Assembly: GCF_004959855.1 (NCBI RefSeq)
Contig: NZ_SPNT01000006.1
Coordinates: 1 to 64,000, forward strand
DNA length: 64,000 nt
Direction of reading: 5' to 3'
Source: Nitratireductor sp. XY-223
GTDB taxonomy: Bacteria; Pseudomonadota; Alphaproteobacteria; Rhizobiales; Rhizobiaceae
Shown here one piece after another: positions 11,759 to 27,518 of the stretch (positions within the stretch are counted from its first letter, which is position 1; each line of letters opens with the position of its first letter). The translations under genes and the position numbers were made by a program. The notes beneath the pieces were generated by a model. That model saw only the letters and a program-made list of their open reading frames with translations, did no database searches and was not told the origin of the DNA.

Positions 11759-12415
11759 CTAAGCCGCGGCCATTTGCGCAAATTCAACACTGCCACGCTC
11801 AATGATGAATACGTTGTCGACCACTTTTTCGGAATGTGTGTAATCCGATTCCGAGATCAGAACCGTCAGGCTTTCCGATCGCAATTCTGCAATAACCTCC
11901 ATCAGCCGTTGAGCCAGGGCCGGCGCGACACCCTCGAAAGGCTCATCCAGGAGCAACAGATTTGTTCCGGTCACCATCGCTCTCGCCAAGGCGACGAGTT
12001 TCTGCTGACCTCCGCTGAGCGTCAGCGCCTTGCGGTCGGCGAAACGACCGATCTCCGGCATGAGGTCGTATACCCATTTTATCCTGGACGTGTCCGTGTC
12101 GTTGAGCGCCCAAAGCGGCACGCTGATGTTCTCCTCCACCGTGAAGTGAGGAACAAGTCTGCGGTCTTCGGGCAAATAACCGATGCCCATCCCCACCCGC
12201 GTATGGGATTTGGCTGCATCCAGTGAAATTCCGTCAAATGTTATCGATCCGCTGTTTAACGGCAGCAATCCCATGATGGCCCGCATGATGGTTGTTTTGC
12301 CGGCTCCATTGCGACCGACAAGACCGCAGGTGGTGGACGTTTCGATCGAAAACGAGACATCACGCAAAATGGGAACATCGTGAATGGACAGATCCAGGTT
12401 TTTGACCTCAAGCAT
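11759..12415 (-). CDS. HAAT ABC transporter ATP-binding protein, LivF type
   Basis: A 218-residue cytoplasmic ATPase with Walker A GRNGAGKTT, signature LSGGQQKLV, Walker B LLLLDEPFEGVAPA and the LivF-type IGYLPEDRRLVPHFTVEEN loop. It is slightly shorter than usual LivF proteins (about 235). The switch histidine is replaced: the segment after Walker B reads VLISESDYTHS. Its start overlaps the upstream LivG gene by one base (TAATG). It is the last gene of the five-gene transporter operon. Confidence 0.88.
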   Translation of the reverse strand: MLEVKNLDLSIHDVPILRDVSFSIETSTTCGLVGRNGAGKTTIMRAIMGLLPLNSGSITFDGISLDAAKSHTRVGMGIGYLPEDRRLVPHFTVEENISVPLWALNDTDTSRIKWVYDLMPEIGRFADRKALTLSGGQQKLVALARAMVTGTNLLLLDEPFEGVAPALAQRLMEVIAELRSESLTVLISESDYTHSEKVVDNVFIIERGSVEFAQMAAA

Positions 12416-13203
12416 TACGCGGTTCCTTTCATCGTTGCGGCGGTTCCGTTCCGGTGAAACTCCTGCCCGACAACGAATTCCCGTACCTTTTCGTTTCTCA
12501 GCACGTCCGCGGTGGGCCCGTCCGCGAGGATGGTTCCTTCGTAGAACGCCATCACACGCGGAGAGAAACGTTCAATGATCTCCATGTCGTGCTCAATGAA
12601 AAGGACGGCCGTATTGGTCGATTGAAGCGCGGAAATCAGAACTTCCATCATGTCCATCTTTTCCTCGGCGCTGACCCCACTGGTCGGTTCGTCCAGGAAA
12701 AGAAGATCGGGATTTGCGACCGTCGCCATTGCGATGTCGATCAGTTTGCGAACACCTTGGGGAAGGGCCGTAACCTCCTGATGGGCGACGTGCTCGATCC
12801 TGAATTTTGCAAGAAGTTCGAGCGCCTCATCGACAATCTCCCGGGTAACAACCGGCCGGAACAGAACCGGTCGCCTCTCCCTGGCGACCGAGAGCGCGAT
12901 CAGAACGTTGTCAAGCGCGGTCAATTCCAGGAAAAGCTGGGGTATCTGGAAGGATCGACAGATGCCCAACCGGGTGATGTCGCGCGTTTCCATGCCGGTG
13001 ATGTCGCGACCACGATACAAAATCTGTCCGGAGCTCGGTTGAAGATAGCCGGTGACCATGTTGACGAATGTCGTCTTGCCCGCCCCGTTCGATCCGATGA
13101 TGCCGAGCACTTCACTCTCGAAAATCTCTGCATTGATATCCCTGGCGGCCACGACGGCATCGAACCGCTTCTCCAGGCCCCGCGTTTCCAAAACAACGGT
13201 CAT
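12415..13203 (-). CDS. HAAT ABC transporter ATP-binding protein, LivG type
   Basis: A 262-residue ATPase with Walker A GSNGAGKTT, Walker B LLFLDEPTSGVSAEEK, switch histidine in VLFIEHDME and the LivG-type GICRSFQIPQLFLELT loop. The signature loop is unusual: ALPQGVRKLIDIAMA in place of LSYGQQRRLEIA. I set the start at 13203 (MTVVLETRGLEKRF), where ATG overlaps the permease stop as ATGA; the longer open frame has no similarity. Confidence 0.88.
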   Translation of the reverse strand: MTVVLETRGLEKRFDAVVAARDINAEIFESEVLGIIGSNGAGKTTFVNMVTGYLQPSSGQILYRGRDITGMETRDITRLGICRSFQIPQLFLELTALDNVLIALSVARERRPVLFRPVVTREIVDEALELLAKFRIEHVAHQEVTALPQGVRKLIDIAMATVANPDLLFLDEPTSGVSAEEKMDMMEVLISALQSTNTAVLFIEHDMEIIERFSPRVMAFYEGTILADGPTADVLRNEKVREFVVGQEFHRNGTAATMKGTA

Positions 13204-14195
13204 GAGCGTGCTCCTTCCGGTTCGGAGGCCGCCTTGACCCTGTGGGTGAATTTGTTTTTGAGGCCGTTGTTGGAGCTTACGAGAGACCAAAGCCCGCGCG
13301 GCAGGAACACGATGATCAAAAGCATGACCGAGCCGACAATGATGTGCCAGGAGTCAGGCGCAATCTCGACCGCGTAGACGCGTATGAACTCAAGCAGGAG
13401 CGTTCCGAAAAGCGGTGCCGCGACGTTTCCGATCCCGCTCAGAATAGCGATGAAGACGAACTGCGCCGAGGTTACCCAATTGGTCATTTCAGGGTCGATA
13501 TGACCCAATGCCATCGCCCAGAGAACACCGCCAATGGAAGACACGACCGCGGCGATCACATATATGATGTGAACGGCCTTGCGCGCCGACATTCCCAGAT
13601 ACTCGATGCGGATCTCGTTCTCCCGCAGCGCTTCCCCGACATAGCCCATCGGGCTGCGCAAGAACCGGTGAAGCAGGATCGCGCAGATGACGGTCGGGAT
13701 GCATGTCGCAACGTAGAGAACGTCTCCGGACACGCTCTGGCCAGGCAACCACCCCAGATAGCTCGTTGCCGGCAGGTTGAAGCCATCCGTGCTCCCCAGT
13801 TCCTCGCTGCTGCTCAGCAGTCCAAAAAGAATCATGGAAACGGCAAGCGACAGCATTGCGTAGAATATCCGCCGGTATCGGCGAAGCAGAAATCCGAGAA
13901 GGAACGAGACTACAAGGCCGGCTGCAATGCCCAGCGCGATCAACAGGAAAAAGTCGGAAAGACCCCAGAGTCTGCCCGCCAGTCCGGCCGCATAGCCTCC
14001 GATGCAGAAATAGAGACCCTGCCCGAAGGAAACGAGACCCGCCCGCATCTGGACCATGACGCCAAGGGCCACCAGTCCGGTTCCCAGCGACACATGGATG
14101 TAGTTGACGATCCACTGCGGAAGAAGAAGACCGCAGGCGATCAACAGCGGCAAGGCTGCAATGAAGCCAAGCTCCGTGCGATCGAGATTGTTCAT
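13200..14195 (-). CDS. HAAT ABC transporter permease, LivM type
   Basis: A 331-residue inner-membrane permease with about ten hydrophobic segments and the LivM signatures GLVSFGQGLYFCIGGYAAGL and AILSGIGNVAAPLFGTLLLEF. The open frame continues far upstream, but those residues are arginine-rich shadow of the LivH gene. The ATG at 14195 overlaps the LivH stop by one base and begins MNNLDRTELGFIAALPLLI. Confidence 0.88.
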   Translation of the reverse strand: MNNLDRTELGFIAALPLLIACGLLLPQWIVNYIHVSLGTGLVALGVMVQMRAGLVSFGQGLYFCIGGYAAGLAGRLWGLSDFFLLIALGIAAGLVVSFLLGFLLRRYRRIFYAMLSLAVSMILFGLLSSSEELGSTDGFNLPATSYLGWLPGQSVSGDVLYVATCIPTVICAILLHRFLRSPMGYVGEALRENEIRIEYLGMSARKAVHIIYVIAAVVSSIGGVLWAMALGHIDPEMTNWVTSAQFVFIAILSGIGNVAAPLFGTLLLEFIRVYAVEIAPDSWHIIVGSVMLLIIVFLPRGLWSLVSSNNGLKNKFTHRVKAASEPEGARS

Positions 14196-15091
14196 CAGAT
14201 CTTCCTCCCTTCGGCCAGCGCAAAGAGCCCGTAGGGCCTGAAGGCGAGAACCACGGCCATGACGAGGTAGATGGAAAAGAGTTCGGCCGGCGGATAGACA
14301 TGGACCGAAAAGGCCCGTGCGAAGCCGACGATGATTGCTCCGATCATCGCTCCCCCGACACTGCCCATGCCGCCGATCACGATAACGGCAAAAGCCAGAA
14401 CGATGATTTCCGCGCCGATCCCCGGCGTTACCGAGATTTCGGGCGCAGCGACGGCTCCGCCGAAGGCGCCGAGAACGGCACCGACAACGAAGGTCACGGT
14501 AAAGAAGAGCGTGACGTTGATACCGAGGGAAGCGCTCACTTCCCGGTCCTCGATAACCACCATGAGGAGCTTTCCGGAGCGGGTATAATTCAGCGCCCAC
14601 CAAAGCGCGGCCCCCACGACGGCGGCAACACCGATCACGATGAACCTGTAGACCGTGTAGGGAATGCCGAGGACATCGATCGAACCGAAGTAAAACGCCG
14701 GTTGATAGGCGACGTAGGAATCCGTTCCCCAGATGAGCTTGGTGACGTCCTCGAGAACCAGAAAAATCGCGTAGGTGACGAGAACCATCAGGATCTCGTC
14801 CTTGCCGTACATGAACCGCAGGATGCCCCGTTCGATCAGCAGCCCCGAAACGACCCCCGCCACCAGAGCGGCGACGGGTATGAGCAGGAAGGTGAGGGCG
14901 ATCGTACTGCCGGTCTGCGAATAGAGCCCAATCGACCAGGCCGCGGAATAGGCGCCGAGCGCATAAAATCCCCCATGGGCGATATTGAGTATGCGCATGA
15001 CGCCGTAGATCAGCGTCAAGCCGACGGATGAAAGGAAGAGCCAGGCTGAAAACCCCAATCCGTCGACAATGATGGCAATTGCTGTGAGCAT
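14195..15091 (-). CDS. HAAT ABC transporter permease, LivH type
   Basis: A permease of about 298 residues with LivH hallmarks: SVGLTLIYGVMRILNIAHGGFYALGAY, EDREVSASLGINV and AFAVIVIGGMGSVGGAMIGAIIVG. In-frame starts exist at 15118 (GTG), 15100 and 15091. I favour 15091 because GAGGGA is then spaced about ten bases away and the family N-terminus starts there. It pairs with the LivM protein to form the channel. Confidence 0.86.
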   Translation of the reverse strand: MLTAIAIIVDGLGFSAWLFLSSVGLTLIYGVMRILNIAHGGFYALGAYSAAWSIGLYSQTGSTIALTFLLIPVAALVAGVVSGLLIERGILRFMYGKDEILMVLVTYAIFLVLEDVTKLIWGTDSYVAYQPAFYFGSIDVLGIPYTVYRFIVIGVAAVVGAALWWALNYTRSGKLLMVVIEDREVSASLGINVTLFFTVTFVVGAVLGAFGGAVAAPEISVTPGIGAEIIVLAFAVIVIGGMGSVGGAMIGAIIVGFARAFSVHVYPPAELFSIYLVMAVVLAFRPYGLFALAEGRKI

Positions 15092-15170
15092 CGGGAGCAT
15101 TCCCTCTTGTCCGCTCACACAATCCGTCTTTCAAAGACCGAGGTTTGCATTTGCGGGAGTTTCGTGTGCC

Positions 15171-15275: not shown

Positions 15276-16559
15276 CTAGTTGCACTTTGCGCCTTGCAGG
15301 CCGCCCTCGATCCACTCGGTGCCTTTGACACCGGCGGGAGGATTTACGCACTCGGCCGGATACTCCTTCAGATCGACCAGGGTGCCTTTTCCGACAGCTT
15401 CGTCGAATTTATAGGTGCCATAGGTGATGCCGGCGATTGCCTGATGACCGCCGGCGAGCGCCATTTGGATCGTTCCGCTCGGCGCCTCGAATGTCAGCCC
15501 CGCCAATGCGGCGCTGATGTCTTCCGGGGCGACGCTTCCGGCCTTGTCGGCGGCCGCTTTCAATGCCAGCAGGGCCTGGGCCGTCTGATAGGAGGGGCCG
15601 ACCGGCTGCGCCCCGAACCTGGCGACATAAGCTTCGGTGAACCACTTGTTCAGAGCGTTGTCCGGAGCAAGGAGGCCGTATGGGCCACGGGCGCCGATCA
15701 CGGTGCCGTCCGCGATCTGCTTGCCGAAGCGCTCGACAGCCGTGTCACCGACGGTCAGCACAACCTTGCTGTTGTCGAACAGTCCGCGGCCGCCGCCCTG
15801 CAGGATGAAGGCTTCCATGTCGCCGCCCCAGAGACTGGAATGCACGACATCGGACTTATTGGTAAGGAGAGCGGAAATTTCCGATCCGTATTGACCGGCG
15901 AAAATCTTCGGGAACTGCTCGGTTTTGACCTCAACGTCTTCTTTCAGCTTCGAGATCGCAGCCGAAAAATCGCGCCAGGAGTCCTGGCCCCAGGCATAGT
16001 TCTGATTGATGCCGGAAATCGACGCGAGATCAGGGGTCGTGTCGATGATGTAGCGCGCGGCGCCGACATTGTCGCTCGTCGCATGGCTGATCGTCCGGAA
16101 AGCATATTTCGGCTCCGTCACGACTTCTTCGAAGATTTGCGGTGTGCCGCAAACGGCAAAGATGGTCAGAGCCTTGACCTCTTCGGCAACCGGAGCGATC
16201 GCCTTGCAGCTTCCCGAGGACGTGTATCCGATGACAATCTGGGCGCCATCGCCTTGCACGAGCTTCTTGAAATCGGCAACCTTCTGCTTGCTGTTCTCAT
16301 CGACGTAGATCGGTTCGATCCGGGCGCCGGCGATTCCGACGGAATTGTAAGGCGCGGGAATCGTGCCGGCGTTTATTCCTTCGATGATGACTTCGGCAGC
16401 GTTTTTGGCTGGAATACCGAATGGGCCGGAAGCGCCACCGGAGTAAAAGTTGATGACACCGACTTTCACGGGTTCCTGTGCCTGTGCCGCAAGCGGCACT
16501 GAAAGAGCAACGGCGCCGAGCGCGCTTCCAACAAGAATTTTGCGAAGTGCATTCTTCAT
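15276..16559 (-). CDS. HAAT ABC transporter substrate-binding protein (Peripla_BP_6)
   Basis: A periplasmic binding protein of 427 residues with a clear signal peptide (MKNALRKILVGSALGAVALS, cleavage after AQA). The mature protein begins EPVKVGVINFYSGGASGPFG. A C-terminal Cys pairs plausibly with another near EYPAECVNPPAG. GGGAGG precedes the start. It is the first gene of the leftward transporter operon; its promoter region carries a 27-bp element (16672-16698) nearly identical to one upstream of the acyl-CoA synthetase. The ligand is unknown. The linked ligase suggests a carboxylic acid rather than an amino acid. Confidence 0.88.
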   Translation of the reverse strand: MKNALRKILVGSALGAVALSVPLAAQAQEPVKVGVINFYSGGASGPFGIPAKNAAEVIIEGINAGTIPAPYNSVGIAGARIEPIYVDENSKQKVADFKKLVQGDGAQIVIGYTSSGSCKAIAPVAEEVKALTIFAVCGTPQIFEEVVTEPKYAFRTISHATSDNVGAARYIIDTTPDLASISGINQNYAWGQDSWRDFSAAISKLKEDVEVKTEQFPKIFAGQYGSEISALLTNKSDVVHSSLWGGDMEAFILQGGGRGLFDNSKVVLTVGDTAVERFGKQIADGTVIGARGPYGLLAPDNALNKWFTEAYVARFGAQPVGPSYQTAQALLALKAAADKAGSVAPEDISAALAGLTFEAPSGTIQMALAGGHQAIAGITYGTYKFDEAVGKGTLVDLKEYPAECVNPPAGVKGTEWIEGGLQGAKCN

Positions 16560-16671
16560 GATTTCCTCCCATCATTGAGGCGTGGCTCGGAGCCCCAAGC
16601 CAGCTTCTCACAGCCCGGGACGGTTTCCCGGGCCTTGCCAATCGCTCAATGGCAGGAATGTGTTGTGTGAA

Positions 16672-16698
16672 TTTGCGCGAAACGTACGCAATTGTGAC
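16672..16698 (-). promoter_or_regulatory. 27-bp element upstream of the HAAT transporter operon
   Basis: Read on the minus strand it is GTCACAATTGCGTAC, then G, then TTTCGCGCAAA. The same 27 bases with one change occur at 19517-19543. Similarity continues weakly for another 12 bases, including ACAACAC in register. It lies 113 bases upstream of the binding-protein start and behind the 3' end of the response-regulator gene. A regulatory site shared by two promoters is the simplest reading. Confidence 0.7.
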
Positions 16699-16766
16699 GA
16701 AGGTCGTTCAGCGCCTGTCACGCCGCATTTCCGGCAATGATACCGAAGGGACGTTCAAACGATGGG

Positions 16767-17480
16767 TCACACCCACTCGACCTTTGACGAAAAAATGTAT
16801 CCGGCCCCGTAGACGGTTCTTATCAATGTCGGAGATTTTGAATCGTCGCCCAGCTTTTTTCTCAATCGGGAAATGCGGGCATCGACGCTGCGGTCCAGCG
16901 GGTCCTCATCGCTTGTCCGGATGTGGTCCATCAACTGGCTTCGGCTCAGGACGCGGCCGGTCGATTTCACAAATATTTCAAGAAGGCGCGTCTCCGAGGC
17001 ACTCAGGTCTGACTCCATCCCTGCGCGATCGCGCAATGTGCAACTCTGGAAATTCGCTTCCCAGCCGGCGAATCTCGCGGTCTTTTGCGCCTTCGCGCCT
17101 CCATCCGGTTCAAACTGTCTGGACCGCCGCAGAACCGCACGAACCCGCGCAAGCAGCTCTCGCGGCTCGAACGGCTTGACAACATAGTCATCCGCACCGA
17201 CTTCCAGTCCGATGATCTTGTCCGTGAGGCTGCTTCTTCCGGTGACCACGATTGAGGGGATGTTGCTGACCCGCAGATACTCGGTAACCACACTCAGCCC
17301 ATCGCCATCCGGCAGCGACAGATCGACAAGACAAAGATCCGGCGTCTGCCGCTTCAACCGGTTCAGGAAACTCCCGCGCCGCGAAAACGCTTCGATGGTG
17401 AAACCTTCATTCTTCAACGTGCGCGAGATCACCAGGGCAATGTCGGCGTCGTCCTCAAGAACGTAGATGAGCGGTTTCAT
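16767..17480 (-). CDS. OmpR-family response regulator
   Basis: A 237-residue two-component regulator. The receiver domain (about 1-120) has the acidic pair Asp10/Asp11, phospho-acceptor Asp53, Thr80 and Lys102. A C-terminal winged helix follows, with SASETRLLEIFVKSTGRVLSR, SVDARISRLRKKL and IRTVYGAGYIF. It overlaps the upstream hybrid kinase as ATGA, so the two are co-translated partners. It probably binds the repeated 27-bp element in front of the transporter operon and in the kinase/ligase gap; that is inferred from position. Confidence 0.92.
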   Translation of the reverse strand: MKPLIYVLEDDADIALVISRTLKNEGFTIEAFSRRGSFLNRLKRQTPDLCLVDLSLPDGDGLSVVTEYLRVSNIPSIVVTGRSSLTDKIIGLEVGADDYVVKPFEPRELLARVRAVLRRSRQFEPDGGAKAQKTARFAGWEANFQSCTLRDRAGMESDLSASETRLLEIFVKSTGRVLSRSQLMDHIRTSDEDPLDRSVDARISRLRKKLGDDSKSPTLIRTVYGAGYIFSSKVEWV

Positions 17481-19441
17481 CGTGCCGCCTTCACGCTCTT
17501 CATGCCGACTGAATCGGAGCCGGTCAGCGCGGCGATGAGCTCGGCATCCGAAAAGGGCTTACGAAGCATCGAAACGGAGTCCGGCGCATGTGCCAGGTGG
17601 TCCGTCTTGTCCATGTTTCCGCTCATCAGGACAATGGGAATGGCGGGATGGCTTTGGCGCGCGAGCCGGGCAAGTTCTGCACCGTCGACGGATCCGGGCA
17701 TGATGACGTCGGTGAGGATGGCATCCAGCTCCTCGATAACGTCAAGCAGCTCGACAGCCGCATCCGCGTTTTCGGCCTCGACGGTAGAATATCCCAGACC
17801 GGTCAATTGACGACGGACAACCCTTCTGACCTCCGCGTCGTCTTCCACCAGGAGGATGAGGGGTTTCTTCCCGGCATCCGGCATTTCGATTTCCCCGGCG
17901 ACTTGCGCGGGTGCGGCAGGGTGCTCCTCCGTCGTTGGCAACAGGATCGTGAAAGTCGACCCGTTTCCGGGCTCGCTTTCGACCCAGATTGTGCCGTTGG
18001 ACTGCCGAACAAAACCATAGACCAGTGCTAGACCGAGACCAGAACCGCCGACTTCACCTTTTGACGTATGAAAGGGCTCGAAGATCTGATCCGACTCCTC
18101 TTGAGTCATTCCGGAACCGGTGTCGACAATCGCAATGCGCAAATACCGGCCAGCCGAGATGCGCAGGACCGCCGCCTCATCGTCCATCAATTCATAGATG
18201 CCGCTCGACAGTGTTATCCGACCGCTTCCGTCAATTGCATCTCTTGCGTTGACGACAATGTTCAACAGGGCGGTCTCAAGTTCGGAAACGTCGACGAGAA
18301 CACGGGCGCCGTCCGCATCCAGGCGCAGGTCTATTTCTATGTTCTCGGGTATCGAACTGCGGAGAAGCTCGACAAGTCCCGAAACCGTCTCGTCGGCAAC
18401 GACCGGCCGGGGATTGATGGGTTTCTTTCGCGCGATGTTGAGCAGACGCTCCGTAAGGCCGGAACCGCGGCGAGCCGCCGAGATCGCGGGAACCAGGAAT
18501 TCATCGCGCAGCTTGTCGTCCTCAAGGCGCTCCTCCATCGGCACCAAATTGCCGAGAATGATGGCGAGCAGATTGTTGAAGTCATGGGATATGCCGCTCG
18601 ACAGCCGCCCAAGCGCGTCCATCTTTTGAGACCTCAGAAGCGCTGACGTGGCGGCTTTGGTCCGCGTGACATCGACGCTGACAATATAAAAACTGGCCGA
18701 CTCATCTTCTTGCGCCCGCTCGGGCCGCAGAAAAGTCCGGACATCACGAACCCGGTTGTTGCGCATGCGGACCTTCATCTCGAAATCCACGACCTTGCCG
18801 CGTTGCGCCGGCTCGAAGAACTTCTTCGCGATGGCCATTGTCTCCGGATGCAGGACATCGTTGCAGTTCATTCCGACGATCTCGTCGGCCGTCAATCCAT
18901 AGGCGCGGGCGAATTTCCGATTGGCAAACAGAATGTTCATATCGCTGTCGACACGGGCGATGCCCGCGGGGACTTCATCGGCGATCAGTTGCAATCGCGC
19001 CTGGCTCCGACGCAGCTCGCGTGTCCGTTCCGCAGCCTGCCGCTCAAGCTCGCGCTCGCGTTTCTTTTGTATGGTGATGTCGGTGTATATCGAAACGAAT
19101 CCGCCATGCGGCAGCGGCGAACCATAGACCTCGATAATCGTTCCGTCGGGACGTTCGCGCTCAAGGTGGTGTTTTTCGAACCGTTTCGCCGCCGCGACCC
19201 GTTCGGCCACGAGCTCCTCGACATCACCCGAGCCGTATTCTCCTATTTCGGCATTATACCGCATGAAGGACTCGAAATCGGCGCCCACGAAGGCAAGTTC
19301 CCTCGGGAACTCAAGCAGTTCCAGAAACCTGTCGTTCCAGAAAACGAGCCGAAGATGCTCGTCAAAAATGGTTATGCCCTGATTGATATGCTGAAATCCT
19401 TCCCAGGCATATCGGGAGTGCAGGTCTGATCGAGGATCCAC
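17477..19441 (-). CDS. PAS-domain hybrid histidine kinase
   Basis: A 654-residue soluble sensor kinase with no membrane segment. Order: PAS (about 10-125, QGITIFDEHLRLVFWN), a short coiled coil (125-150), second PAS/PAC (about 151-262), HisKA with His286 in SSGISHDFNN, HATPase with Asn398, DTGSGM at 440-445 and GSGLGLA at 466-472, then a C-terminal receiver with Asp578 and Lys628. The start is GTG with GGAAG about ten bases upstream. The cytoplasmic PAS sensors imply an internal signal, perhaps the imported acid or its CoA ester. It overlaps the response-regulator gene and is divergent from the acyl-CoA synthetase. Confidence 0.92.
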   Translation of the reverse strand: MDPRSDLHSRYAWEGFQHINQGITIFDEHLRLVFWNDRFLELLEFPRELAFVGADFESFMRYNAEIGEYGSGDVEELVAERVAAAKRFEKHHLERERPDGTIIEVYGSPLPHGGFVSIYTDITIQKKRERELERQAAERTRELRRSQARLQLIADEVPAGIARVDSDMNILFANRKFARAYGLTADEIVGMNCNDVLHPETMAIAKKFFEPAQRGKVVDFEMKVRMRNNRVRDVRTFLRPERAQEDESASFYIVSVDVTRTKAATSALLRSQKMDALGRLSSGISHDFNNLLAIILGNLVPMEERLEDDKLRDEFLVPAISAARRGSGLTERLLNIARKKPINPRPVVADETVSGLVELLRSSIPENIEIDLRLDADGARVLVDVSELETALLNIVVNARDAIDGSGRITLSSGIYELMDDEAAVLRISAGRYLRIAIVDTGSGMTQEESDQIFEPFHTSKGEVGGSGLGLALVYGFVRQSNGTIWVESEPGNGSTFTILLPTTEEHPAAPAQVAGEIEMPDAGKKPLILLVEDDAEVRRVVRRQLTGLGYSTVEAENADAAVELLDVIEELDAILTDVIMPGSVDGAELARLARQSHPAIPIVLMSGNMDKTDHLAHAPDSVSMLRKPFSDAELIAALTGSDSVGMKSVKAAR

Positions 19442-19516
19442 TGTTTTTCTTCCAGCCGGTTGCTCAAGTCCATAATAACAAGAGAAAATCTCTCAAGGCT
19501 CGAAAATTCTGCCCGT

Positions 19517-19543
19517 GTCACAATTGCGTACATTTCGCGCAAA
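19517..19543 (+). promoter_or_regulatory. 27-bp element in the kinase/acyl-CoA synthetase divergent region
   Basis: GTCACAATTGCGTAC, then A, then TTTCGCGCAAA, matching 26 of 27 bases of the element at 16672-16698 in inverse orientation. It lies 53 bases before the ligase start and 75 bases from the kinase start, so it could control both directions. TTTCGCGCAAA is a near palindrome. Confidence 0.7.
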
Positions 19544-19596
19544 GTCTGACAACACCATGCTGGGAAAACCTCCCGCGGGACCCGGGAGGAACTCGT

Positions 19597-21240
19597 ATGT
19601 CTGCATCATCCAGAAAGCCCAATATCTTCGAGATCGGACTGGACGCCAACGAGGCCAATTACGCGCCGCTCTCACCTTTGAGTTTTATCGAGCGTGCCGC
19701 GCATATCCATCCGGATGCGCTGGCTGTCGTTCACGGCGATGTACGAAGATCCTGGTCGCAAACCTACGATCGGACCCGGATGCTGGCCTCCGCTCTGGTC
19801 GGGCACGGAATATCCAAAGGCGACACGGTATCCGTCATTGCCGCCAATATTCCCGAGCTTTTGGAAGCCCATTTCGGCATACCGATGGCGGGCGCGGTGC
19901 TGAACGCTATAAACACGCGCCTCGACGCGGAAGCGATTGCCTTCATACTCGATCACGCCGAAACCAGGGTCTTCATGGTTGATCCGGAATTCTCCGAGGT
20001 CGCCAGAAAGGCAATCGGCATGTCGGAGAAGAAAGACCGCCTGGTTATCGACATCGAAGATCCCAGTTTCGCGGGCGGTGAAAGGATCGGGTCGCTGACC
20101 TACGAGGAATTCCTGCAACACGGTCGCGCGGACTTCGAATGGGAACTTCCGGACAGCGAATGGGACGCGATAACGCTGAACTACACGTCCGGCACGACGG
20201 GCAATCCAAAGGGCGTCGTCTATCACCACAGAGGCGCACATCTCAACGCACTCGCGCACATCGTCGACTGGGGCATGCCGCATCACAGCGTCTATTTGTG
20301 GACACTGCCGATGTTCCACTGCAATGGGTGGTGCTTTCCCTGGACGATCGCGGCAAACGCCGGTGTCAATGTGTGTCTTCGCGCTGTTCGGGAGGAGCCG
20401 ATCTTCCGCCTCATCCGGGATGAGAAGGTCAGTCATTTCTGCGGCGCGCCGATCGTCCTCAACATGCTGGCAAACGCTCCCGGCGTGTCAAAGGACTTTT
20501 CCCACGACGTGAAGGTGATGACCGCGGGCGCGTCTCCGCCGGCCGCCGTGATCGGAAAGATGGAGGCCATGGGGATCGAGGTGACGCATGTCTACGGTCT
20601 CACGGAAGTTTATGGACCTGCGGTCATCAGCGTGTGGAAAGACAAGTGGGACGGACTGACGGGGGATGAGCGCGCGGCGCTCAAGGCGCGTCAGGGTGTG
20701 AGCAATACAGCGCTTGAAGGTCTGATGGTCGCCGATCCGGAGACGTTGGAGCCTGTTCCAAACGATGGCGAGACGCTCGGTGAAATATTCATGCGCGGCA
20801 ACAACGTCATGCGCGGTTATCTCAAGAACCCCGCGGCCACGGAGGATTGTTTCAGGGGCGGATGGTTCGCCTCCGGAGACCTCGGCGTCATGCATCCGGA
20901 CGGATATGTCGAGCTGAAGGACCGGTCCAAGGACATCATCATCTCGGGCGGTGAGAACATCTCGTCCGTAGAGGTCGAGGACGTTCTCTACAAGCATCCC
21001 GCAATTCTCGAGGCCGCGGTTGTTGCGAAGCCGGACGAGAAATGGGGGGAGACACCATGTGCATTTATAACGCTCAAACCCGGTGAAGATGCCGACCCGA
21101 AAGGCATCATCGAATTCTGCCGGTCCAACATGGCAAGATACAAGGCCCCGAAGACGGTCGTTTTCGGTCCACTTCCCAAGACATCGACCGGAAAAATCCA
21201 GAAATTTGTGCTGAGAGAAAAGGCCAGGACAATCGTTTAG
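19597..21240 (+). CDS. AMP-forming acyl-CoA synthetase
   Basis: A 547-residue ANL-superfamily ligase that activates a carboxylic acid with ATP and CoA. The P-loop YTSGTTGNPKG is at 196-206. Later motifs are YGLTEVYGP, WFASGDLGVMHPDGYVELKDRSKDIIISGGENIS and the C-terminal catalytic lysine in PKTSTGKIQK. Length and the N-terminal PLSPLSFIERAA are typical of medium-chain/3-methylmercaptopropionate (DmdB-like) ligases, but the substrate cannot be read from sequence. GGGAGGAACTCGT precedes the ATG. It is divergent from the kinase operon and probably acts on the acid imported by the HAAT transporter. Confidence 0.88.
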   Translation: MSASSRKPNIFEIGLDANEANYAPLSPLSFIERAAHIHPDALAVVHGDVRRSWSQTYDRTRMLASALVGHGISKGDTVSVIAANIPELLEAHFGIPMAGAVLNAINTRLDAEAIAFILDHAETRVFMVDPEFSEVARKAIGMSEKKDRLVIDIEDPSFAGGERIGSLTYEEFLQHGRADFEWELPDSEWDAITLNYTSGTTGNPKGVVYHHRGAHLNALAHIVDWGMPHHSVYLWTLPMFHCNGWCFPWTIAANAGVNVCLRAVREEPIFRLIRDEKVSHFCGAPIVLNMLANAPGVSKDFSHDVKVMTAGASPPAAVIGKMEAMGIEVTHVYGLTEVYGPAVISVWKDKWDGLTGDERAALKARQGVSNTALEGLMVADPETLEPVPNDGETLGEIFMRGNNVMRGYLKNPAATEDCFRGGWFASGDLGVMHPDGYVELKDRSKDIIISGGENISSVEVEDVLYKHPAILEAAVVAKPDEKWGETPCAFITLKPGEDADPKGIIEFCRSNMARYKAPKTVVFGPLPKTSTGKIQKFVLREKARTIV

Positions 21241-21302: not shown

Positions 21303-22679
21303 TTAACCCGCCCCCAGCACCTCCACGACCGCTCTTGCGGTCTTGTCGACAATAATGTCCGCCTCTTCGCGGCTCAGGCACAGCGGCGGCGCAAAGCCGA
21401 GAATATCGCCCTGCGGCATGGCGCGTGCGATGACGCCGTGGTCGAACAGGGCCGCGGCGACCGACGGGCCGACCTTCCGGCCGGGGTCGAAGAAGCGGCG
21501 GTCGGCCCTGTCCTCGACGAATTCCACCGCACACAGCATGCCTTCGCCCCGGACTTCCCCCACATTCGGGTGCCCTGACAGGGCCTCGCGCATGGTCGAA
21601 TTCAGGTAGGCGCCGGTCTGGCCGGCGTTCATGACCAATCCAAGCCGGTCGATCAGGTCGAGATTTGCGATGCCTGCCGCAGCCCCGACTGGGTGTGCCG
21701 AATAGGTCCAGCCATGGCCGATCGGCCCGTTTTCGTCGGTTCCTTCCTCCAGGATTGTCCATACGGTGTCCGACACGATTGAACCGGAAAGCGGCGCATA
21801 GGCGGAGGTCAGGCCCTTGGCAACCGTTATGATATCGGGCTCAAGTCCATAGTGTGCCGAACCGAACATCGTTCCCAGGCGCCCGAAACCGGTGACGACC
21901 TCGTCGGCAATCAGCAGAATGTCGTGCTCCCTAAGAACCGACTGGACCGCCGGCCAATAGCCTTCGGGCGGCGGCACGATGCCGCCTGTGCCAAGCACCG
22001 GTTCGCCGATAAAGGCCGCGATTGTCTCGGCTCCCTCGCGCGCGATCAGCGCTTCCAGCTCCTCGACGCAGTGATTGACAAAATTGCCTTCCGACATCGC
22101 GGGATCGGGGCACCGGAAGAAATAGGGCGCCTCGGTATGCAGGACCTGATCAAGCGGCAGGTCGAACTTCTTGTGGAACAGCTCAAGGCCGGTCAGCGAT
22201 CCGGTCATCAGACCGGATCCGTGGTAGCCGCGCCAGCGCGATATGATCTTCTTCTTTTCCGGTCTGCCGAGAATATTGTTGTAGTACCAGACAAGCTTGA
22301 TGTTGGTTTCGTTGGCGTCCGAGCCGGACAGCCCGAAATAGACATGGTTCAAACGCGCCGGCGCGCGCTCGGCGATCATCTTCGCCAGCGTAATGGAGGC
22401 CTCGGTCCCGTGACCCACATAGGCGTGGTAGTAGGCCAGCTCGCGCGCCTGGTCCGCGATCGCATCGGCAATCTCCCGCCGCCCGTAGCCGACATTGACA
22501 CAATAGAGCCCGGCGAAGGCGTCAAGCAGGCGCTTGCCGTTGCGGTCTTCGATGTAGACGCCGTCGCCGCCTGTGATTATCCTGTTGGCCGCTTCGCCGC
22601 GGGCGAACTGCCCGAGATGGGTCGACGGGTGAAAGAAGTGGTCGCGGTCCCACTGGTCGAGATGATCGTTCTTCAGCAT
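21303..22679 (-). CDS. doeD: Class III aminotransferase, probable L-2,4-diaminobutyrate transaminase of ectoine degradation
   Basis: A PLP enzyme of 458 residues with the class III pattern [15 protein letters not shown] and the Schiff-base lysine in [14 protein letters not shown]. Motifs [22 protein letters not shown] and [10 protein letters not shown] fit the omega-amino-acid:pyruvate group. In ectoine degradation the final enzymes are a transaminase making aspartate semialdehyde from diaminobutyrate and a dehydrogenase making aspartate. The neighbouring dehydrogenase and AsnC regulator match the asuR-ssd-atf tail of the Ruegeria ectoine cluster. GAGGAAATAA precedes the start. Confidence 0.85.
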
Positions 22680-24847: not shown

Positions 24848-24861
24848 TAAATCATGACAAT
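24848..24861. promoter_or_regulatory. Conserved motif overlapping the enuR start codon
   Basis: TAAATCATGACAAT spans the enuR ATG (24854-24856). Its exact reverse complement, ATTGTCATGATTTA, occurs upstream of uehA at 26298-26311. A 14-base identity at two control regions of one regulon suggests an EnuR (or AsnC-type) binding site; here it would also allow autorepression by covering the start region. Confidence 0.5.
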
Positions 24862-26242
24862 ATGGCCACCCCGTCCCGAGGACCTGAAGCGTCCCGCCTA
24901 CCGCTCGCTCGCCGAGACCGTTATCCGCGCCATCGAGGAAGGCGAACTGCGCGGCGGCGATCGCCTGCCGACGCATCGCAACCTCGCCTATGATCTCGGT
25001 CTCAGCGTTCAGACGGTGAGCCGCGCCTATGACGAGTTGATCCGGAGGGGCTTTATTGCCGGGGAGGTGGGACGCGGCACCTTCATCAGGTCGGAACGCA
25101 GCGAGACCAGGACACCGTTCCTGCCTGAAAGCCAGCGCGGCGAGATCATCGACTGCTCGATGCTGAAGCCGGTTTTCGAGCCCCTGCACCAGGATGCGAT
25201 GAGCGAGGCCCTGGCGGCCTTGAGCGCCGACATGCCGAGCCCCGTCATCTCGTCCTTCCGTCCGTCGCGGCTGTTGCACCGCTACCGGGAAGCGGCTTTG
25301 AAATGGCTGCGGCTGTGCGGGCTGCGCATGCAGTCCCAGAGCCTGCTGCTGACCAATGGCAACACATCGGCCATGACCATTTCGCTGATGACGGCCGCCA
25401 ATCCCGGCGAACTCGTCGTTACCGAGGAGCTTGGGCATCACACACTCAAACCGCTGGTGCGCTATCTGGGTCTTCGCCTGCGCGGACTGGCCATCGACGA
25501 GGAAGGCATCGTCCCGTCTGCCTTCGCGCAGGCCTGCGACCGGGAGGCTGTGAAAGCGCTTTTCGTCATGCCCACCGGGCTTGCGCCCAAAGCCACGACC
25601 ATGTCCGAGGAACGCCGTTCGGAACTGGTCTCCATCGCCCGTGAACGGGACGTGCTGATTGTCGAAAACGATGCATGGGGTCCGGTTCAGGCCAAGAGGC
25701 CGCCGCCGATTGCGGCGCTTGCCCCCGAGCGCACCTTCTATTTCACCAGCCTGACCAAGTGCATCATGCCCGGGCTGCGCTACGGATTTCTCGTCGTGCC
25801 GGAAACATTCGAGGCCGCCGCGGCGAACCGGCATCTCGTCACCAACTGGATGGTGACGGCCCTGATGGCCGAGATCGGCTCACGATGGATCTCCGATGGC
25901 ACGGCGGAGCGCTTGCTCGATTGGCAAAAGAAGGCCCTCGGACGTCGCAACCGGCTCGCCGCGCGCATTTTTTCGGGGATCCCTTACTGCGGCAGCGAGA
26001 ACGGCATGCATATCTGGCTGCCGCTTCCGCAAAGCTGGACGGAAGAAGAGTTTGTCGCCCATGCGTCGCGCAACGGCGTGGCGGTCGGGCCGGGGTCGTC
26101 CTTCGCGGTGTCCGGGGTCTCGCCGGAGCCCGGCATACGGATCTGCCTCGGGGCTGAATCAATGCAGGACCTGGAAAGGGGCCTGACAATGATCTGTCGC
26201 CTGCTTCGCAGTCAGCCCGAACCGGTCCTGCTCGCTTACTAG
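24854..26242 (+). CDS. enuR: MocR/GntR-type PLP-dependent repressor of ectoine catabolism
   Basis: A 462-residue fusion of a GntR winged helix (about 15-75, GDRLPTHRNLAYDLGLSVQTVSRAYDELIRRGFIAGEVGRGTFI) to an inactive aminotransferase fold (about 110-450). The PLP-binding lysine in FTSLTKCIMPGLRYGF is Lys302, the position reported for Ruegeria pomeroyi EnuR. Known biology: EnuR represses uptake and catabolic genes until PLP reacts with the ectoine breakdown products alpha-ADABA or DABA. It is divergent from the AsnC regulator and followed by the TRAP transporter genes. Confidence 0.93.
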   Translation: MTIWPPRPEDLKRPAYRSLAETVIRAIEEGELRGGDRLPTHRNLAYDLGLSVQTVSRAYDELIRRGFIAGEVGRGTFIRSERSETRTPFLPESQRGEIIDCSMLKPVFEPLHQDAMSEALAALSADMPSPVISSFRPSRLLHRYREAALKWLRLCGLRMQSQSLLLTNGNTSAMTISLMTAANPGELVVTEELGHHTLKPLVRYLGLRLRGLAIDEEGIVPSAFAQACDREAVKALFVMPTGLAPKATTMSEERRSELVSIARERDVLIVENDAWGPVQAKRPPPIAALAPERTFYFTSLTKCIMPGLRYGFLVVPETFEAAAANRHLVTNWMVTALMAEIGSRWISDGTAERLLDWQKKALGRRNRLAARIFSGIPYCGSENGMHIWLPLPQSWTEEEFVAHASRNGVAVGPGSSFAVSGVSPEPGIRICLGAESMQDLERGLTMICRLLRSQPEPVLLAY

Positions 26243-26498: not shown

Positions 26499-27518
26499 AT
26501 GAAAACCGCAATTCGCAAATTCCTGAGCGGTGCCGCTGCCGCGGCCATCCTGGTCTCAGGTATCGCGGCTGCCGAAGCCGCCAACTGGAAATATGCATTC
26601 GAAGAGTCGCTGACCGAAGTTCAGGGCGTCTACGCGCAGAAATTCAAAGAGGAAATCGAGAAGAATTCCGATCATACCATTCAGCTCTTTCCGTACGGCA
26701 CGCTGGGTGAATCCGCCGATATCATGGAACAGGCCCAGGCCGGTATCCTTCAGTTCGTCGACCAGTCGCCGGGCTTTACCGGCGCGCTGATCCCGGAGGC
26801 CCAGGTGTTCTTCGTGCCCTATCTCCTCCCGACAGACCAGGAACATCTGGGCCGTTTCTACAAGCAGAGCAAGGCGATCAACGAGGACTTCACCGCGCTT
26901 TATGCCGACAAGGGCCTGGAACTGCTCGTCATGTTCCCGGAGGGCGAGGTGGCGATGACCACCAAGTCGCCGGTGACCGGCTGTGCCGATCTCAATGAGG
27001 TCAAGTTCCGGGTCATGACCAACCCGCTGCTGGTCGAATCCTACAAGGCCTTCGGTGCGACACCCACACCGTTGCCCTGGGGGGAGGTCTATGGCGGGCT
27101 TCAGACCAATATCATCCAGGGCCAGGAAAACCCGACCTTCTTCCTCTATTCGACGAAGATCTACGAGGTGACGGATCACATCACCTATGCCGGCCACAAC
27201 AACTTCACCACGGCGGTGATGGCCAACAAGGACTTCTTCGACGGACTGAGCGACGCGGACAAGAAGGTCGTCCGGGATGCCGCGGCAGTCGCGTATGATT
27301 TCATTGTCGACTACCAGAAGGGCCTCGCCGACCAGGAACTGAAGAAGATCCTCGAAGCCAAGCCCGAGATGACCGTCACCGTGCTCAATGAAGAGCAGCG
27401 CCGCTGCTTCAAGGAAGCGGCAGCGGAAGTCGAAGCCAAATTCATCGAGATGACCGGCGACAGCGGCAAGGCTATCCTGAACCAGTTGAAGGCGGATCTG
27501 GAAGCAACAAAGAACTAA
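26499..27518 (+). CDS. uehA: Ectoine/5-hydroxyectoine TRAP transporter, periplasmic binding protein
   Basis: A DctP-family binding protein of 339 residues with a signal peptide (MKTAIRKFLSGAAAAAILVS, cleavage near AEA|ANWK). Family motifs include NWKYAFEESLTEVQGVYAQKFKEEIEKNSD, KFRVMTNPLLVESYKAFGATPTPLPWGEVYGGLQTNIIQGQENP and YAGHNNF. UehA captures ectoine and hydroxyectoine for the UehBC permease. It is the first gene after enuR. The long leader and the stem-loop after its stop suggest strong, regulated expression. Confidence 0.93.
   Translation: MKTAIRKFLSGAAAAAILVSGIAAAEAANWKYAFEESLTEVQGVYAQKFKEEIEKNSDHTIQLFPYGTLGESADIMEQAQAGILQFVDQSPGFTGALIPEAQVFFVPYLLPTDQEHLGRFYKQSKAINEDFTALYADKGLELLVMFPEGEVAMTTKSPVTGCADLNEVKFRVMTNPLLVESYKAFGATPTPLPWGEVYGGLQTNIIQGQENPTFFLYSTKIYEVTDHITYAGHNNFTTAVMANKDFFDGLSDADKKVVRDAAAVAYDFIVDYQKGLADQELKKILEAKPEMTVTVLNEEQRRCFKEAAAEVEAKFIEMTGDSGKAILNQLKADLEATKN

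What the first reader, a model, noticed from the sequence alone, without database searches (positions are those of the whole stretch)
16672..19543. Nearly identical 27-bp element at two promoters of one two-component module
Positions 16672-16698 (minus strand) and 19517-19543 (plus strand) share 26 of 27 bases: GTCACAATTGCGTAC, one variable base, TTTCGCGCAAA. Further in-register matches follow (ACAACAC). One copy lies before the HAAT transporter operon, the other between the kinase and acyl-CoA synthetase genes. With the kinase and regulator genes between the copies, this looks like the binding site of the OmpR-type regulator and defines its regulon: transporter, ligase and possibly itself.
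Basis: partly seen in the sequence, partly recalled or inferred. Interest (0 to 1): 0.75.

Follow-up and report, generated by a model that had tools for sequence, protein, structure and literature searches.

The report
Conserved regulator box controlling acid uptake
Two nearly identical 40-base DNA boxes look like docking sites through which a neighbouring sensor-regulator pair controls an acid-activating enzyme and a transporter, and the same kind of box recurs in related bacteria in front of such enzymes.

Summary
Confirmed: the 27-mer occurs twice, 26 of 27 bases alike, and at no third place in the 6.19-Mb genome within three mismatches. Both boxes face their targets alike: the SBP/HAAT operon and the acyl-CoA synthetase (ACS). 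A weight matrix from six orthologous loci ranks exactly these two sites first in 64 kb (37.6, 35.3 bits; next 9.0). In 295 genomes of another family, the 121 with the box (at most 2 mismatches) all carry the regulator or, on one cut contig, its kinase. Genomes with the acyl-CoA ligase have the box in 114 of 129 cases with the regulator and 0 of 78 without. Where pair and ligase lie apart, the box is at the ligase (5 of 5). TTGAC abuts the ligase side in 21 of 42 distant relatives, not in the window. Special to the window: a transporter of a different subfamily carries a copy. Binding, activation and the inducing acid are untested.

The parts
16660..16699 (+). Box copy 1, four 10-bp units GTGTTGTGTG AATTTGCGCG AAACGTACGC AATTGTGACG; target = SBP/HAAT operon on the minus strand (about 100 bp from box to SBP ATG)
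19516..19555 (-). Box copy 2, GTGTTGTCAG ACTTTGCGCG AAATGTACGC AATTGTGACA; target = acyl-CoA synthetase on the plus strand (41 bp to ATG); divergent kinase start about 75 bp away
16767..17480 (-). OmpR-family response regulator (237 aa), proposed to bind both boxes
   Evidence: Pfam Response_reg and Trans_reg_C; Asp53 present; 52-57% orthologs in six loci with a box
17477..19441 (-). Apparently soluble hybrid histidine kinase: PAS_7, PAS, HisKA/HATPase, C-terminal receiver
   Evidence: Pfam; H-box HDFNNLL with His286, highest 19-residue hydropathy 1.33, so no typical membrane span
19597..21240 (+). Acyl-CoA synthetase (PRK08162 subfamily), target of copy 2
   Evidence: NCBIfam NF006020, 912 bits against a cut-off of 677; 66-75% homologs in L080 and L243-L247
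15276..16559 (-). Periplasmic substrate-binding protein of a HAAT transporter, first gene of the operon behind copy 1
   Evidence: Pfam Peripla_BP_6; UrtA-like well below cut-off
14195..15118 (-). HAAT permease (UrtB/LivH-like)
13200..14204 (-). HAAT permease (UrtC/LivM-like)
   Evidence: 65-66% homologs in the same gene order in L060-L062
12415..13209 (-). HAAT ATPase (UrtD/LivG-like)
11759..12415 (-). HAAT ATPase (UrtE/LivF-like)

Best explanation
The two copies are operator boxes of the OmpR-type response regulator encoded between them. Each is a 40-bp array of four 10-bp units on which (inferred) two head-to-tail regulator dimers sit just upstream of, or overlapping, the promoter. The soluble PAS hybrid kinase (inferred) senses a carboxylic acid or its CoA ester inside the cell and phosphorylates the regulator, which activates the acyl-CoA synthetase and the HAAT transporter, coupling uptake of the acid to its activation. 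Shown: the box, its presence at just these two promoters under the patterns tried, its conservation at orthologous ligase operons and its co-occurrence with this regulator. Inferred: binding, phosphorelay, activation rather than repression, and the ligand.
For: Two strong sites in the genome under two patterns; a third, weak match scores 17.2 bits, inside the random range. A PWM from six non-window sites ranks the two copies first and second (37.6, 35.3; next 9.0); a PWM from 42 more distant sites also ranks them 1 and 2. In 58 related loci the locus-wide best hit is upstream of the kinase in 40; in 8 of the other 18 it is strong and in front of the ligase. In 295 genomes of another family: box (<=2 mismatches) in 121; 117 have the regulator at E<=1e-55; of the other 4, three have kinase and regulator beside the box and one has the kinase on a cut contig; the reversed control pattern matched in 3 of 295 (at <=3 mismatches). 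Ligase genomes: box in 114 of 129 with the regulator (110 of 125 before the four were added), 0 of 78 without. Pair and ligase unlinked: box at the ligase and none beside the pair in 5 of 5. PWM column similarity peaks at lags 10-11. TTGAC directly abuts the box on the ligase side in 21 of 42 sites; in the other 21 none follows within 45 nt. Both window copies have the same orientation to their target.
Against: No binding or expression data. 16 of 58 loci gave no usable in-register site; L085-L089 and L093 have at most a diverged variant. 17 of 134 regulator genomes lack a site at 2 mismatches and 8 at 3. The distant-class PWM gives the window copies only 5.3 and 4.2 bits, exceeded by 1 of 20 column-permuted matrices. 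One of 14 loci with unrelated regulators has a 21.2-bit hit (L028), so boxes of other OmpR-type regulators can score. Neither window copy is followed by TTGAC, and 41 bp before the ACS start leaves little room for a full downstream promoter, so it should overlap the box. The window 40-mers show no sharp lag-10 peak of their own. The pattern was derived from loci that carry the pair, and the genomes share ancestry, so the Fisher values overstate independence. Only the regulator, not the kinase, was searched in the 295 genomes.
Confidence: 0.87

Rival explanations
1. The boxes belong to the same regulon but the regulator represses from them (or is dual), for example by covering the promoter.
For: Copy 2 lies in a divergent promoter region, and neither window box has a free TTGAC downstream, so the box may cover the promoter.
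Against: In relatives the box sits directly upstream of TTGAC, the usual place of an activator, in 21 of 42 sites.
Confidence: 0.12
2. Another DNA-binding protein, not the neighbouring regulator, binds the boxes.
For: Co-occurrence is not proof of binding; the own genome has 49 first-look regulator candidates, and one unrelated regulator locus carries a similar-scoring site (L028).
Against: 121 of 121 boxed genomes carry the regulator or (one) its kinase; 0 of 78 ligase genomes without the regulator have the box; direct repeats of about 10-11 bp are the form used by OmpR-type regulators.
Confidence: 0.05
3. A dispersed repeat or small mobile element.
For: Near-identity of two copies in opposite orientations.
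Against: Only two copies in the genome, both at promoters and equally oriented to their targets; found mostly as one site per genome in other genera.
Confidence: 0.01
4. Chance, or a recent small duplication without function.
For: A short duplication could create 35 of 40 identical bases.
Against: Identity stops at the box edges, and a matrix that never saw the window recognises both copies.
Confidence: 0.02

Closest known systems
Pho box / PhoB, and PhoP, of the OmpR/PhoB family
   Same: Winged-helix response regulator on tandem direct repeats. PhoP: 7-bp repeats with 4-bp spacers (start of abstract of PMC4832192). PhoB: effector domains bind direct repeats in tandem and the dimer is modelled touching RNA polymerase (passages of PMC3348028).
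   Different: Other sequence, about 10-bp period, four units, targets for acid activation and uptake.
TctD-TctE of Pseudomonas aeruginosa
   Same: Two-component system answering to a carboxylic acid, citric acid (title and abstract start of PMC6403454). That TctD is OmpR-type and controls citrate uptake is recalled.
   Different: No acyl-CoA ligase, membrane sensor (recalled).
CrbS/CrbR and RpuS/RpuR
   Same: Two-component control of acetate use and of a pyruvate symporter (title and abstract start of PMC9100948).
   Different: SLC5/STAC sensor kinases; here an apparently soluble PAS hybrid kinase.

Membership tests
OmpR/PhoB-family response regulator | Receiver plus Trans_reg_C winged-helix domain | tested here: met
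   Response_reg 78.7 bits and Trans_reg_C 79.3 bits, both above cut-off
OmpR/PhoB-family response regulator | Phospho-acceptor aspartate | tested here: met
   Asp53, invariant in 17 aligned regulators
OmpR/PhoB-family response regulator | Binds tandem direct repeats of about 10-11 bp | tested here: inconclusive
   The box has that form in the pooled sites, less clearly in the window copies alone; binding not testable
Hybrid histidine kinase | HisKA with phospho-His, HATPase_c, receiver | tested here: met
   HATPase_c and Response_reg above cut-off; HisKA 24.5 bits, just below its 26.9 cut-off, but H-box intact
Activator box abutting a sigma-70 -35 element | TTGAC next to the box on the target side | tested here: not met
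   Met in 21 of 42 distant relatives but at neither window copy; no consensus promoter found by scan
Dispersed repeat family | Many copies in the genome | tested here: not met
   2 copies in 6.19 Mb within 3 mismatches
Named regulators of NCBIfam (CreB, OmpR, PhoB, TorR and others) | Score above the curated cut-off | tested here: not met
   Best score 176.6 against a cut-off of 273; none of the 25 families shown (of 85) reaches its cut-off

The most novel reading that the evidence does not exclude
A widespread, unnamed two-component regulon (soluble PAS hybrid kinase, OmpR-type regulator, 40-bp four-unit box) couples acyl-CoA activation to HAAT uptake of an organic acid. In this lineage a transporter from a different HAAT subfamily was drawn into the regulon by acquiring a near-copy of the box, in place of the HAAT genes that follow the synthetase in four orthologous loci. 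The kinase may read the intracellular acid or acyl-CoA.
Probability: 0.55. Interest if true: 0.62.

Novelty: new member of a known kind. Interest (0 to 1): 0.5.

Why it matters
It gives a regulator without a known function a defined operator and two defined targets, and predicts the same kind of regulon in over a hundred genera, with a testable prediction for each genome: the box marks the ligase that the pair controls, even when they lie far apart. It also offers a clear case of a transporter being recruited into a regulon through its promoter. The inducing acid is the open question, and the box makes a reporter for it easy to build.

Tried and rejected
None has this regulator in the stretch read and none has a box (best 15.4 bits). 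So the window's HAAT seems to have joined the regulon separately; this search did not help to define the box.

Dispersed repeat, chance and functionless duplication were rejected. A third pattern match in the own genome (contig 22) scores 17.2 bits, within the maxima of 20 random 64-kb sequences (9.1-17.8), and was set aside as chance. No matrix scan of the whole genome was possible, only patterns. The sigma-70 and terminator scan gave nothing above shuffles. Among these 80, two further loci had hits over 18 bits: L103 (25.0, discussed) and L121 (18.4, not followed up).

Rows dropped before counts: of 62 loci, 4 had no full kinase. Of the 58 left, 16 were kept out of the 42-site set because they had no site of 18 bits or one in the wrong register or strand. 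Of the 40 loci with the best hit upstream of the kinase, six are such cases: L087, L094, L098 under 18 bits, L097, L248, L242 in the wrong strand or register.

Two readings of my own were withdrawn on checking. G1308, first counted as a genome with pair and ligase apart, has both at contig ends, so they are probably one locus cut by the assembly; the count is 5, not 6. G1145, first read as having two boxed ligase operons, shows the same box region on two overlapping contig ends; notebook entries 3 and 4 still carry the old readings. The unlinked genomes were picked by eye from the place lists.

Ten literature searches ran. Seven were aimed at this module (42, 47, 48, 51, 52, 64, 71) and listed 2, 0, 0, 0, 0, 1 and 2 papers, judged by title and abstract start only; none appeared to describe it. 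Most subscription papers are not held, so that is no proof of absence.

Full report
Observation. The 27-mer is present at both stated places with one difference. Within 3 mismatches it occurs nowhere else in the 6.19-Mb genome and in 0 of 7 congeners. Extending both copies shows that they share 35 of 40 bases and nothing clear outside (14 of 60 and 16 of 60 in the flanks). Read in the direction of the kinase gene, each is four 10-bp units: GTGTTGTGTG AATTTGCGCG AAACGTACGC AATTGTGACG (copy 1, 16660-16699) and GTGTTGTCAG ACTTTGCGCG AAATGTACGC AATTGTGACA (copy 2, 19516-19555).

Genes. The regulator is a two-domain OmpR-type protein; none of the 25 NCBIfam families shown (of 85 matched) reaches its cut-off. 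The kinase is a PAS_7/PAS hybrid kinase with a C-terminal receiver and no stretch hydrophobic enough for a typical membrane span (highest 19-residue hydropathy 1.33). Copy 1 faces the operon of a periplasmic binding protein with HAAT permeases and ATPases; copy 2 faces the acyl-CoA synthetase, with the kinase-regulator operon diverging. Both boxes have the same orientation relative to their target gene.

Relatives. Homologs of the regulator (42-51% in the 14 loci fetched from the window's family; 52-57% in the five best of another family; 53% on a Thioclava plasmid) lie behind a homologous kinase. On the Thioclava plasmid and in L244-L247 the pair diverges from an ACS 71-75% identical to the window's; in L244-L247 that ACS is followed by HAAT genes only 31-35% identical to the window's (26% for the second permease). 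In a wider class the pair mostly diverges from a longer AMP ligase with a LivG-type HAAT gene.

The box is conserved. A weight matrix from six non-window sites, scanned over 64 kb on both strands, gives 37.6 and 35.3 bits at the two copies and 9.0 at the next position; the best of 20 random 64-kb sequences was 17.8. Over 58 other loci, the best hit of the whole locus lay upstream of the kinase in 40 (34 of them strong and in register); of the remaining 18, eight (L090-L092, L095, L229, L230, L237, L255) had a strong hit (25.7-36.9 bits) in front of the ligase, and ten had nothing above 12.0 bits. L217 carries two boxes, one upstream of the kinase and one before ACS, a parallel to the window. 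A gammaproteobacterial locus (Thiolinea, L103) has a 25.0-bit site between HAAT genes with a 63% ACS homolog and a kinase-regulator pair whose kinase matches only in its C-terminal part. As controls, 23 of 23 SBP-family loci had no hit over 15.4 bits, while 1 of 14 loci with other OmpR-type regulators (L028) had one of 21.2.

Genome-wide tests in 295 genomes (294 genera) of the second family. A 36-bp pattern with at most 2 mismatches is found in 121 genomes; 117 of these have the regulator at E<=1e-55. Of the other four, three (L285-L287) have kinase and regulator beside the box, two of the regulators cut by a contig end, and one (L288) has the kinase on a contig that ends there. 17 of 134 regulator genomes lack a site at 2 mismatches, 8 at 3. 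The reversed control pattern matched in 3 of 295 at up to 3 mismatches. Genomes with the ligase (E<=1e-200; 207 of 295) have the box in 114 of 129 with the regulator, the four inspected genomes counted in (110 of 125 before), and in 0 of 78 without; genomes with neither, 0 of 79; genomes with the regulator but no such ligase, 7 of 9. At 3 mismatches the first three figures are 123 of 129, 6 of 78 and 2 of 79; one of the six (L289) has a kinase of this kind beside the box. In five genomes (G1103, G1280, G1231, G1150, G1273) the pair lies on another contig or at least about 80 kb from the ligase; in 5 of 5 the box is in front of the ligase and none is beside the pair. So the box belongs to the ligase promoter and goes with the regulator. 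Fisher values (1.5e-57 for box and regulator; 4e-36 within ligase genomes before the four were added) are not corrected for ancestry.

Mechanism. The pooled sites resemble themselves at lags 10-11. In 21 of 42 distant sites TTGAC follows the box with no gap on the ligase side; in the other 21 none follows within 45 nt. That is where an activator touching RNA polymerase would sit, as modelled for PhoB (passages of PMC3348028). The window copies lack this TTGAC; with 41 bp between box and ACS start, the promoter should overlap the box. Activation is therefore inferred mainly from relatives. Autoregulation of the kinase operon is possible in the window but is not the conserved function, because the box stays with the ligase when the two are apart.

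Special to the window. Its HAAT belongs to a subfamily whose other members were, in the 23 loci read, neither beside this regulator nor boxed, whereas in four orthologous loci the ACS is followed by a different HAAT. The simplest account is that this transporter took the place of the other and came under the regulator by gaining a box nearly identical to copy 2: the copies share 35 of 40 bases with each other but only 19-28 of 40 with six orthologous boxes. The direction of copying and the timing are inference. Two neighbourhoods of homologous transporters contain a succinate-semialdehyde dehydrogenase, an iron-containing alcohol dehydrogenase and a lactonase or MBL-fold hydrolase, which hints at a C4 hydroxy-acid, semialdehyde or lactone; this is only a lead.

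Literature. Seven searches for this combination listed no paper that appeared to describe it, judged by titles and abstract starts; only open-licence papers are held.

Noticed in passing
window 15276-16559; L082, L083: Homologs of the SBP lie beside SSADH, iron alcohol dehydrogenase and lactonase/MBL-fold genes (annotated AttM in L083), suggesting a C4 hydroxy-acid or lactone substrate.
   Followed up: partly
L255 7993-9363; window 21303-22679: The PRK07482-type aminotransferase next to the window's ACS has a 75% homolog between kinase and boxed ligase in another genome, hinting at a shared pathway.
   Followed up: no
L085-L089, L093, L094, L096-L098: By eye, relatives in the window's family have diverged boxes (AATTGTTGCGAGAGTTTTTCC- or AATGTTGCGAAATGTTTCA-like) between the kinase and the HAAT/ligase operon.
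   Followed up: partly
L103 5445-5484: A gammaproteobacterial locus (Thiolinea) has a 25.0-bit site between HAAT genes plus a 63% ACS homolog and a regulator with a different kinase (membrane-type by eye).
   Followed up: partly
window 24854-26242: A MocR-like regulator above the NCBIfam EhuR (ectoine utilisation) cut-off; the next gene, 26499-27518, looks by eye like a TRAP binding protein. No box there.
   Followed up: no
L028 2287: Upstream of an unrelated OmpR-type regulator a 21.2-bit hit, apparently that regulator's own GTAACA-type repeats.
   Followed up: no
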